From NCBI GenBank assembly GCA_017549185.1, contig JAFYVJ010000040.1, positions 1-50,593 of the forward strand: DNA of 50,593 nt. The letters run 5' to 3'. Position 1 is the stretch's first letter, and each line of letters opens with the position of its first letter. The notes under the pieces were generated by a model, which was not told where the DNA came from, ran no database searches, and worked only from the letters and a program-made list of their open reading frames with translations. A program made the position numbers and the translations under genes. Positions 26,475 to 37,512 of the stretch are shown piece by piece. This DNA is from Roseburia sp. Its GTDB lineage: Bacteria > Bacillota > Clostridia > Lachnospirales > Lachnospiraceae.

Positions 26475-26479
26475 AAAGA

Positions 26480-26631
26480 TAACTATTCAGAGCACCATTC
26501 GCAAAATCGCCTCTTTGAGGCTTTGCTTTTGCTCATGTTGGCTTCTCGCCAAAGAAATTTTATAAAAAGCATTTGTTTCAGCAAGCTGAACATCTGCTTT
26601 TTATAAAAATTGCCTTGGCTCTGAATAGTTA
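26480..26631 (-). repeat. Modular palindromic element (152 bp, long form)
   Basis: The ends TAACTATTCAGAGC and GCTCTGAATAGTTA are perfect 14-bp inverted repeats. Read on the minus strand the order is end, a long hairpin (ATTTTTATAAAAAGCA with TGCTTTTTATAAAAT, tipped by GTTCAGC/GCTGAAAC), a linker with GGCGAGAAGCCAACATGAG, a second small hairpin and the other end. The linker and tail align with the elements at 29223 and 35554. It is the only copy read on this strand. Confidence 0.7.
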
Positions 26632-26729
26632 CAAAAAAAGATTGATTTTTTTGGGACAGATAGCTATTATGATATTATTATATGATTCGGTAATATCGAG
26701 GAAATTAATAATTAATTTGGAGGAAAGTT

Positions 26730-28584: not shown

Positions 28585-29196
28585 ATGAAAAAAGCTTTAT
28601 TATTTTTATTAACAGGTATTATGGTTGTTGGAACTATGACAGCATGTGGTTCTAAGGATAATGCAGGTGCAAACACAGAAGTTAATACAGAGGTAAATAC
28701 AGAAGCTGTTGTAGACACAGAAGTAGTTGTAGATACAGAAGAGTTTGTAGAAGACGAAGTAGTAGAAGCAAGTGAATTAGAAGGAATCGTAAATTCTATT
28801 TACGAAAATCATGCACCAATCGAGTTAATGCTTGGAACAATTCCTGTAAATGTAGCAGATGTGGATGATTTAACATACAACACAGGTTTAACAAGCGGTG
28901 AAAAACTTGTAGAGGCAGTTCGTTCTGAAACAATGATGGGTTCACAGGCTTACTCTTTAGTAGTTGTAAAAGTAGCTGATGCTGCTGATGCACAGGCTGT
29001 AGCTGATGAAATGTACGATAACATTGACCAGCGTAAATGGATCTGTGTAGAAGCTGGTGACAAAATGGTGGCTACATTTGGTGACATCGTTATGTTAATG
29101 ATGGTTGACGTAGAATACGCAGACGCTGTAACAGCACAGAGTATTGTAGATGCGTTTGCAGCTGCTTGTGGTGCAGAACTTGATTACGTTCGCTAA
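28585..29196 (+). CDS. Lipoprotein with Thr/Glu-rich linker (DUF4358-like)
   Basis: A 203-residue lipoprotein. The signal peptide ends MTAC, with Cys21 the lipid anchor. The linker repeats NTEVNTEVNTEAVVDTEV, similar in style to the lipoprotein at 8285. The C-terminal domain (about 70-203) has YNTGLTSGEKLVEAVRSE, GSQAYSLVVVKV, an ADAQAVADEMYDNIDQRKW helix and GDIVMLMMVDVEYADAV. This resembles the DUF4358 family, often encoded beside MBOAT acyltransferases, which is the case here. The family assignment is from memory and moderate. AAGGAG precedes the ATG. Confidence 0.7.
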   Translation: MKKALLFLLTGIMVVGTMTACGSKDNAGANTEVNTEVNTEAVVDTEVVVDTEEFVEDEVVEASELEGIVNSIYENHAPIELMLGTIPVNVADVDDLTYNTGLTSGEKLVEAVRSETMMGSQAYSLVVVKVADAADAQAVADEMYDNIDQRKWICVEAGDKMVATFGDIVMLMMVDVEYADAVTAQSIVDAFAAACGAELDYVR

Positions 29197-29222
29197 TGAA
29201 AGTTCATGTAAATGGAAATGAA

Positions 29223-29355
29223 GTAATTGTTCAGGACAGCTCAAAACACTTGCTGTTTTGAGCGTAAGAACATGATTCAGGAGTGCAAAAATCCCATTGC
29301 GAAGCAATTTTTTATGGATTTTTGTATCGTAATTATGAAGGTACTGAATAATTAC
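29223..29355 (+). repeat. Modular palindromic element (133 bp, full form, copy A)
   Basis: The ends are GTAATTGTTCAG and CTGAATAATTAC. Hairpin 1 is GCTCAAAACA-cttgc-TGTTTTGAGC. The linker is GTAAGAACATGATTCAGGAG. Hairpin 2 is AAATCCCATTGC-gaa-GCAAT with an outer GGATTTTT arm. The tail is ATCGTAATTATGAAGGTACT. It has exactly the same length and module order as the element at 35554, but different stem sequences. Confidence 0.85.
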
Positions 29356-29365
29356 GAAATGAGAA

Positions 29366-34089: not shown

Positions 34090-34150
34090 GTTACATTTCA
34101 CATACGCCAATCACTTGCTGATTGATGAGGCAGAACGTGTAAATAGTAAC
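34090..34150. repeat. Modular palindromic element (61 bp, one-hairpin form)
   Basis: GTTACATTTCAC at the left and GTGTAAATAGTAAC at the right are the inverted ends. Between them is hairpin 1, GCCAATCA-cttgc-TGATTG...GGC, with the same CACTTGCTG tip as the element at 29223. The linker and second hairpin are missing. Confidence 0.7.
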
Positions 34151-34183
34151 AATGTAAAGGACGATTAGAAAGGTTTCATAGAA

Positions 34184-35542: not shown

Positions 35543-35553
35543 AATATTGATTT

Positions 35554-35686
35554 GTAATTATTCAGTAGGTCTGTGCATTTGTTGCACAGACCGTGAGAAA
35601 ATGAGTCGAGAGTGAGCAAACTCCATCAGCGTAGCTGATTTTTAATGGGGTTGCGAATCGTAACTATGAAGGTACTGAAGAGTTAT
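35554..35686 (+). repeat. Modular palindromic element (133 bp, full form, copy B)
   Basis: The ends are GTAATTATTCAG and CTGAAGAGTTAT. Hairpin 1 is GGTCTGTGCA-tttgt-TGCACAGACC. The linker is GTGAGAAAATGAGTCGAGAG. Hairpin 2 is CTCCATCAGC-gta-GCTGAT with an outer GGGGTTGC arm. The tail is ATCGTAACTATGAAGGTACT. It matches the copy at 29223 in length, module positions, linker and tail, but the stems differ while remaining complementary. Confidence 0.85.
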
Positions 35687-35697
35687 ATTGATTTTAC

Positions 35698-37347: not shown

Positions 37348-37410
37348 CGTTACCGTTCACTCAGCAGCTAATCATTTACTGATTTGCTACGTAAGAACAT
37401 GATTTAAGAG
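37348..37410 (+). repeat. Modular palindromic element (left part; right part uncertain)
   Basis: Left end CGTTACCGTTCAC, hairpin 1 AGC-AATCA-tttac-TGATT-GCT, and the linker GTAAGAACATGATTTAAGAG, which is almost identical to the element at 29223. A possible second hairpin, AACCAGTGC-ggaa-GCATTGGTT, lies at about 37436-37459, but the right end has diverged. Confidence 0.65.
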
Positions 37411-37512
37411 ATAAATTTTTCCAAAAGAAGTCTAAAAACCAGTGCGGAAGCATTGGTTCTGTGATATAATGTATCCTGTTATATTAGGCGAATTTTAAGG
37501 CAGGAGGCCATA

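What the first reader, a model, noticed from the sequence alone, without database searches (positions are those of the whole stretch)
29223..29355. Two 133-bp intergenic elements with covarying hairpins
The elements at 29223-29355 and 35554-35686 have identical length and module order. Hairpin 1 sits at element positions 16-40 in both. Its 10-bp stem is GCTCAAAACA/TGTTTTGAGC in one and GGTCTGTGCA/TGCACAGACC in the other, almost unrelated yet fully complementary. Hairpin 2 likewise keeps pairing with altered bases. The linker (GTRAGAAnATGAnTC) and tail (ATCGTAAYTATGAAGGTACTGAA) stay conserved. Hairpin 1 tips in four copies fit CA-YTTRY-TG. Compensatory change with conserved unpaired segments points to selection on a folded RNA or single-stranded DNA. 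The design recalls BOX elements or folded recombination sites, but I know no described family that matches.
Basis: seen in the sequence. Interest (0 to 1): 0.82.

Follow-up and report, generated by a model that had tools for sequence, protein, structure and literature searches.

The report
Mobile repeat with conserved RNA fold
The two hairpin elements are copies of a small mobile DNA repeat, found in many bacteria of the gut family Lachnospiraceae, whose sequence changes while the shape of its single strand is kept, which suggests that it is selected to fold, probably as RNA inside bacterial messages.

Summary
Confirmed and extended. 29223-29355 and 35554-35686 are two insertions of a dispersed miniature transposon (MITE). 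Its ends are near-symmetrical inverted repeats, GTWACTRTTCA(G/C), with 8-bp target duplications (51 of 63 copies match at 7-8 of 8 bases; none at 7 or 9-12 bp). Ends and duplication fit the ISBst12 group of the IS66 family; two copy-bearing genus-mates carry such elements with near-matching ends. A covariance model finds copies in 32 of 62 genomes of the genus, 29 of 200 family genomes, one per genus, and 4 of 291 across the class, all in-family. Inside are four modules: hairpin 1, conserved linker, hairpin 2, 3' hairpin made from the right end. On 97 diverged copies, 10 of the 11 column pairs that beat a tree-based null lie in these helices. G.U cells outnumber A.C 85:32 and tandem G.A replaces pairs in hairpin 1, so the + strand is the folded one. 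Linker-bearing copies lie along flanking co-directional genes 82:19, but replication direction confounds this. Best reading: a MITE selected to fold as RNA in leaders and gene junctions; its function is inference. No Rfam family matched. New variant of a known kind (BOX/ERIC-like MITEs).

The parts
29215..29222 (.). left target-site duplication GAAATGAA, element 1
   Evidence: sequence; 7 of 8 match with the right copy
29223..29234 (+). left terminal inverted repeat GTAATTGTTCAG, element 1
29239..29263 (+). hairpin 1 (10 bp, loop CTTGC), element 1
29264..29284 (+). conserved linker GTAAGAACATGATTCAGGAGT
   Evidence: alignment columns G41, T42, A46, A47, G51 at 95-100% of 97 copies
29285..29325 (+). 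hairpin 2, two-part stem with GCGAAGC tip
29329..29355 (+). 3' hairpin whose 3' arm is the right terminal inverted repeat (29344-29355)
29356..29363 (.). right target-site duplication GAAATGAG
35546..35553 (.). left target-site duplication ATTGATTT, element 2
   Evidence: read; 8 of 8 match with 35687-35694
35554..35686 (+). element 2, whole (R1 match 35554-35687, 131.4 bits)
35568..35592 (+). hairpin 1 (GGTCTGTGCA/TGCACAGACC, loop TTTGT), element 2
35616..35654 (+). hairpin 2, element 2; its inner stem 35625-35639 plus TTTT is one weak terminator-like match
35660..35686 (+). 3' hairpin with the right terminal inverted repeat, element 2 (in the lone-sequence fold other pairings win)
35687..35694 (.). 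right target-site duplication ATTGATTT, element 2
   Evidence: read
37349..37458 (+). decayed or truncated copy with GTTACCGTTCAC left end
   Evidence: 31.5 bits, E 1.2e-4

Best explanation
The element is a non-autonomous miniature transposon (MITE) moved by an ISBst12-group transposase of the IS66 family. Its + strand carries a four-module fold (hairpin 1, linker, hairpin 2, 3' hairpin) that selection keeps while stems and even terminal repeats are replaced. It sits mostly between co-directional genes or upstream of a gene, in the sense direction, so the fold would be made in host mRNA. Shown here: mobility signature, fold, strand, orientation bias, spread. Inferred: that RNA (not single-stranded DNA) is the selected molecule, and that the fold works at the mRNA level. 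Most likely role (about 0.4): a compact untranslated spacer that lets the insertion be tolerated inside operons and leaders, by setting processing, stability or polarity of the message; the conserved unpaired linker and loop may bind a host factor. The 3' hairpin may in part belong to the transposon end itself.
For: MITE: 8-bp duplications in 51 of 63 copies, unrelated-flank control 1.4%; both window copies have them. Transposase class: elements with ends GTTACTATTCACAG (L147, 14 of 14 in both arms) and GTTACTATTCAC (L150, 12 of 12) in G022 and G054, which bear at least 54 (scoring cap) and 13 R1 matches; L151 in G067 with GTTACTGTTCAG and an 8-of-8 duplication; three such proteins hit NF033517 and PF03050. 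In print ISDge4, ISBst12 group, has GTAACTGCTCAGCA ends and an 8-bp repeat (PMC12898284, passages). Fold. Strand: G.U 85 against A.C 32 over three helices; in hairpin 1 G.A 79 against C.T 0 (cells, not independent events). Orientation: 82 sense to 19 antisense of 101 tandem contexts among linker-bearing copies; over all classified copies 108 to 23. The same modules occur with different ends (GTAACTATTCAG, GTTACTGTTCAC). Right-end hairpin pairs 110-132, 112-130, 114-128 covary, while the left-right end pair 3-132 does not reach significance (E 6.5).
Against: No transcript data. Orientation also follows replication in part: in G179 (a subfamily whose viewed copies lack the usual hairpin 1) 38 of 52 copies follow the replichore, and 11 of 14 in gene-neutral contexts; of 30 copies examined there, sense to antisense is 11:5. 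The bias is as strong in copies with perfect duplications (27:6) as in those without (41:7; one-mismatch class 14:6), so it may arise at insertion. It is weaker in other genera (22:11) than in the own-genome/set (35:6) and genus-mates (25:2). Genes were called by a simple ORF script. Candidate IS elements also show right-end hairpins, mostly weak: L155 has strong end hairpins (-17.2 and -10.8 kcal/mol), the other five -4.3 to -7.3 at the right end, against -5.7 and -6.5 for the window copies; so the 3' hairpin alone is no proof of an RNA role. Of the six IS only L151 has an 8-of-8 flank repeat; L150 has 7 shared bases shifted by one; the other four have none. The own genome (70% complete) shows only classical IS66 with other ends, so the actual partner is not identified. 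By the strict script 80 of 160 linker-bearing copies have no clear duplication.
Confidence: 0.68

Rival explanations
1. The + strand fold is needed as single-stranded DNA during transposition or replication; sense orientation follows the direction of replication.
For: Replichore bias in G179, 38 of 52 and 11 of 14 in gene-neutral contexts; over gene-neutral linker-bearing copies agreement with local GC skew is 24:16; six candidate IS elements show some right-end hairpin, strong in L155; GNA-type tips such as GCGAAGC are very stable in DNA (recalled).
Against: Hairpin 1, linker and hairpin 2 are not found in IS66 loci: R1 gives 3 weak hits in 24 loci (E 0.0054, 0.031, 0.045); the two in loci with mapped ends lie outside the IS. 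In the own-genome/set and genus-mates gene-neutral contexts show no skew bias (5 agree, 7 disagree) while tandem contexts are 60:8.
Confidence: 0.18
2. A mobile regulatory RNA: the core is recognised by a specific host factor and regulates the next gene (cis-regulatory module spread by a transposon).
For: Conserved unpaired linker and loop (columns G41, T42, A46, A47, G51 at 95-100% of 97 copies); the core outlives changes of terminal repeats; 116 of 141 classified linker-bearing copies have a gene start downstream of the 3' end in the same direction (82 tandem-sense plus 34 divergent, against 19 plus 6).
Against: No shared downstream gene class was looked for; copies number in the tens per genome, as for parasites; no ligand or factor known.
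Confidence: 0.2
3. A weak transcription attenuator: the inner stem of hairpin 2 followed by T residues slows or ends transcription.
For: One terminator-like match in element 2 at 35625-35639 (0.2 expected by chance); a short T-run after this stem is common in the alignment.
Against: No such match inside element 1; the T-run varies and the outer arm of hairpin 2 follows at once; other copies were not scanned. No promoter-like match in either element.
Confidence: 0.07
4. No selection: stems are kept complementary by a mutational process that copies one arm onto the other (quasi-palindrome correction).
For: Would also give changed but complementary stems.
Against: It works on DNA without strand preference, but G.U exceeds A.C 85:32 and G.A stands in for pairs in about a third of 97 copies (20-36 in 33, 21-35 in 32).
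Confidence: 0.04
5. Independent unrelated hairpin insertions that only look alike.
For: Stems of the two window copies are nearly unrelated.
Against: Intermediate stems and shared linker, ends and module order in dozens of copies, with model matches in 29 of 200 genera.
Confidence: 0.01

Closest known systems
BOX elements of Streptococcus pneumoniae (PMC3049150, passages read)
   Same: Modular small intergenic repeat, terminal inverted repeats, proposed to be moved by an IS in trans (ISSpn2), RNA structure drawn from an alignment of 30 copies, co-transcribed with genes in several cases.
   Different: Other host; sequence not compared here. In the text searched the words 'covaria' and 'compensatory' do not occur. 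The pneumococcal repeats are tabulated there as overrepresented between convergent genes; the elements here are rare there (12 of 222).
ERIC and Correia elements (as described in PMC3049150 passages)
   Same: MITEs of bacteria that can change mRNA stability; ERIC in a specific orientation.
   Different: Other hosts; not compared by alignment here.
ISBst12 group of the IS66 family, ISDge4 (PMC12898284, passages read)
   Same: Terminal repeats GTAACTGCTCAGCA / GTGACTACTCAGCA and an 8-bp direct repeat, near the ends and duplication seen here.
   Different: ISDge4 is an autonomous IS with a 449-aa transposase in Deinococcus; the element here has no gene and a structured core.
QMITE2 of Coxiella burnetii (PMC10969869, passages read)
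   Same: MITE with 7-9 bp repeats, inverted ends and a transcript predicted to be structured.
   Different: Structure there is an mFold prediction of the full-length transcript; no sequence relation tested.

Membership tests
MITE (non-autonomous miniature inverted-repeat transposable element) | terminal inverted repeats | tested here: met
   GTWACTRTTCA(G/C) at both ends; 124 matches of GTAACTATTCAG within 1 mismatch in the own genome against 19 for the reversed control (these include the second MITE family)
MITE (non-autonomous miniature inverted-repeat transposable element) | target-site duplication of fixed length | tested here: met
   8 bp in 51 of 63 copies, none at 7 or 9-12 bp
MITE (non-autonomous miniature inverted-repeat transposable element) | short, no transposase gene, many copies | tested here: met
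   133 bp; 42 blastn matches in own genome, whole or partial; 41 R1 matches
ISBst12/IS66-derived MITE | ends match an ISBst12-type IS in the same or a related genome | tested here: met
   near match: L147 and L150 in copy-bearing genus-mates have GTTACTATTCAC; not in the own genome
ISBst12/IS66-derived MITE | candidate IS itself makes 8-bp duplications | tested here: inconclusive
   1 of 6 IS with 8 of 8 (L151), L150 shifted by one, 4 without
ISBst12/IS66-derived MITE | transposition by that transposase | not testable with these tools
   needs an assay
BOX element | boxA-boxB-boxC sequence modules | not tested
   no BOX sequence was compared
ERIC | ERIC consensus sequence | not tested
   no alignment made
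Any Rfam family (4227) | match on the element at or above the family's gathering score | tested here: not met
   window, gathering: 0 matches; 7 loci, E up to 5: 11 matches, all under their cut-offs; one T-box (92.6 of 93 bits) next to a copy in L051, and an rli38 row at E 3.2 over the copy in L002
Integron attC or other folded recombination site | insertion without terminal inverted repeats and staggered-cut duplications (recalled) | tested here: not met
   inverted ends with 8-bp duplications

The most novel reading that the evidence does not exclude
A family-wide mobile cis-RNA: one RNA domain (hairpin 1, GTRAGAA linker, hairpin 2, 3' hairpin) has been carried through the Lachnospiraceae by swapping transposon ends while its fold is kept, is recognised by a host factor, and rewires operons by dropping the same RNA control module into leaders and gene junctions in the sense direction.
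Probability: 0.2. Interest if true: 0.85.

Novelty: new variant of a known kind. Interest (0 to 1): 0.6.

Why it matters
Bacterial MITEs are often called structured, largely from folding predictions (recalled). Here the fold is supported by covariation against a tree-based null, is specific to one strand, and is kept across many genera while stems and transposon ends are replaced. That makes the question 'do parasitic repeats carry selected RNA?' directly testable in common gut commensals, and gives a covariance model for annotating many unexplained intergenic repeats.

Tried and rejected
Rfam at gathering and at permissive thresholds: nothing convincing on the element. Classical IS66 copies of the own genome as partner: ends GTAAACGC..., rejected. 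R1 in 24 IS66 loci: three weak hits, so the core is not a remnant of these IS. A short ORF starting at the linker ATG/GTG: open in some copies, a stop after 4 codons in others (by eye), rejected. Promoter: no match in either element. Terminator: none in element 1, one weak match in element 2; kept as a minor rival. Target preference as cause of the orientation bias: the duplication starts with a purine in every context (45 of 50 sense, 13 of 15 antisense, 33 of 38 mixed), but the flanking purine excess is too small for 4:1. Decay of the bias with age: none seen. A first context count (122 copies) held duplicates and was replaced. Phage-contig scan: 1 stretch, only folded. Literature: MITE + IS66 + Lachnospiraceae 0 papers; Lachnospiraceae + 'miniature inverted-repeat' 3 papers, not on this by title and abstract start; listings (10 of 12; 8 of 8; 12 of 31; 10 of 28) named nothing on this repeat. 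Only the held open library was searched.

Full report
What is there. The element at 29223-29355 begins with GTAATTGTTCAG, ends with CTGAATAATTAC, and is flanked by GAAATGAA and GAAATGAG; the one at 35554-35686 begins GTAATTATTCAG, ends CTGAAGAGTTAT, and is flanked by ATTGATTT on both sides. Both lie between co-directional ORFs; 26 and 11 bp separate them from the upstream stop codon (ORFs ending at 29196 and 35542). Blastn with the first copy gives 42 matches, whole or partial, in the own genome.

Mobility. The ends recur 124 times (within 1 mismatch) in the own genome against 19 for the reversed control. A second, 154-bp MITE family with the same ends but another inside sits at 26479-26632. 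Classical IS66 copies in the own genome have other ends. Diverged IS66-family elements in genus-mates have near-matching ones: L147 (G022), L150 (G054), L148 (G043), L149 (G069), L151 (G067), L155 (G050). L151 has an 8-of-8 flank repeat, L150 one of seven bases shifted by one, the other four none. Three of the proteins match NF033517 at 149, 155 and 179 bits, under its cut-off of 180, and pass PF03050. A published ISBst12-group element, ISDge4, has GTAACTGCTCAGCA ends and an 8-bp repeat (PMC12898284, passages read). I had recalled GTAA ends and 8-bp duplications for IS66 before finding this; 8-bp repeats for two IS66 members are tabulated in PMC3281130 (passages).

Fold. Of 54 full-length hits I dropped four exact duplicates, two near-identical copies, one cut off by a contig end and one of the second end type, and aligned the other 46 by sequence (A1). 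RNAalifold puts pairs in hairpin 1 and in a 3' hairpin formed by the right end and an internal copy of it, and none in hairpin 2. With a four-helix structure that I wrote from one copy, 90.9% of cells are paired against 80.3% in shuffles and 27-44% in slid versions; 18 of 32 pairs have changes on both sides. In hairpin 1 the two middle pairs are non-standard in 32 of 46 copies, nearly always tandem G.A. For a test that respects relatedness I took 222 distinct insertions, dropped G179-type copies, copies without the linker motif and lengths outside 120-150 (158 left), filtered at 93% identity (97 left), aligned with MAFFT, kept columns filled in 60% or more, built a FastTree tree and simulated 60 null alignments with the same substitutions per branch. 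Eleven column pairs had E under 0.05; ten are pairs of hairpin 1 (five), hairpin 2 (two) and the 3' hairpin (three); the eleventh is a neighbour of a hairpin 1 pair. The outer stem of hairpin 2 did not reach significance in this test. The left-right end pair at columns 3-132 did not either (E 6.5), so the 3' hairpin rather than end-to-end pairing is the supported structure.

Strand. Over three helices there are 85 G.U cells against 32 A.C; in hairpin 1 there are 79 G.A and 0 C.T, mostly a tandem CGAA/TGAG in place of two pairs; in hairpin 2 C.T (19) exceeds G.A (8), nearly all at its outermost pair. These are cells, not independent events. A structure kept on both strands, or by a copying mutation, would not favour G.U. 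Tandem sheared G.A in this context is known from RNA and DNA (recalled).

Modules. Hairpin 1 tips are mostly CAYTTRCTG (ATTTACTG 36 and ACTTGCTG 31 of 97) or a GGAACC-type turn; the linker is CGTRAGAAnRTGATTCA; hairpin 2 tips are often GCGAAGC. Copies with GTTACTGTTCAC ends carry the same core. One copy (L299) appears to lie within quite different ends, GGCGGTTG...CAACCGCC (by eye, a single case). Copies viewed from G179, G104 and G213 keep hairpin 2, the 3' hairpin and the ends but have another 5' hairpin.

3' hairpin and the IS. Folding 40 bases at each end of six candidate IS gives right-end hairpins of -4.3 to -7.3 kcal/mol in five and -10.8 in L155 (which also has -17.2 at its left end), against -5.7 and -6.5 for the right ends of the window copies. 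So this module may belong to the transposon end. Hairpin 1, linker and hairpin 2 have no counterpart there.

Spread. R1 matches 32 of 62 genomes of the genus (E up to 0.001), 29 of 200 genomes drawn one per genus from the family (E up to 1e-6; own included) and 4 of 291 genomes of the class, all in the same family (own included). Copy counts in these searches are capped. Of 54 stretches found by the tail pattern in named genomes (many from the same few assemblies), 51 are titled Lachnospiraceae, the rest Clostridia, Eubacterium sp. and 'bacterium'; that the own genome's family is Lachnospiraceae is inferred from this.

Context. Of 222 distinct insertions, 108 lie in sense and 23 in antisense between co-directional ORFs, 42 between divergent, 12 between convergent ORFs, 20 overlap an ORF, 17 could not be classed. 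For copies with the conserved linker it is 82:19 (binomial p 1.7e-10, not corrected for kinship): 35:6 in the own genome and set, 25:2 in genus-mates, 22:11 in other genera. For sense copies the median gap is 13.5 bp to the upstream stop and 52.5 bp to the next ORF. Replication direction is a confounder: in G179, whose GC skew changes sign between 1.62 and 1.80 Mb, 38 of 52 copies follow the replichore. In the own-genome/set and genus-mates the few gene-neutral cases show no skew preference (5 agree, 7 disagree), in other genera 19 agree and 9 disagree. The bias is not weaker in copies with perfect duplications (27:6) than in others.

Reading. An ISBst12-type MITE whose inside is a selected fold, probably RNA. 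Steps shown: mobile signature, fold, strand, orientation, spread. Steps inferred: that transcripts are made, that the fold acts in the message, and how. The role as tolerated spacer or processing module is the most likely to me; a regulatory module with a host factor is the bolder reading.

Comparison. It works like BOX or ERIC elements (passages of PMC3049150; PMC10969869) but was not compared with them by sequence.

Noticed in passing
window 26479-26632: A 154-bp MITE of a second family with the same ends (GTAACTATTCAGAGC) and several hairpins; seven more similar-sized copies and ten shorter ones (49-98 bp) were fetched from the own genome.
   Followed up: partly
window 34090-34152: A short element with GTTACATTTCAC left end and the CACTTGCTG hairpin 1 tip but no hairpin 2.
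   Followed up: no
L051 2967-3101 and 3173-3428: A copy of the element lies about 70 bp upstream of a T-box leader (92.6 bits, cut-off 93).
   Followed up: no
L299 1541-1675 and flanks: A core copy enclosed by different ends (GGCGGTTG...CAACCGCC) with its own new 3' hairpin; may show that the core moves between transposons.
   Followed up: partly
duplications of copies in all contexts: The 8-bp target starts with a purine, often G then A, in element orientation, although the ends are nearly symmetrical: an asymmetric target choice.
   Followed up: partly
L155 1582-3410: An IS66-family element whose two ends each fold into a strong hairpin (-17.2 and -10.8 kcal/mol).
   Followed up: no
L086 780-836 and L085 2460-2515: Classical IS66 copies carry a GTGGATAACAAT... 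palindrome between or in ORFs.
   Followed up: no
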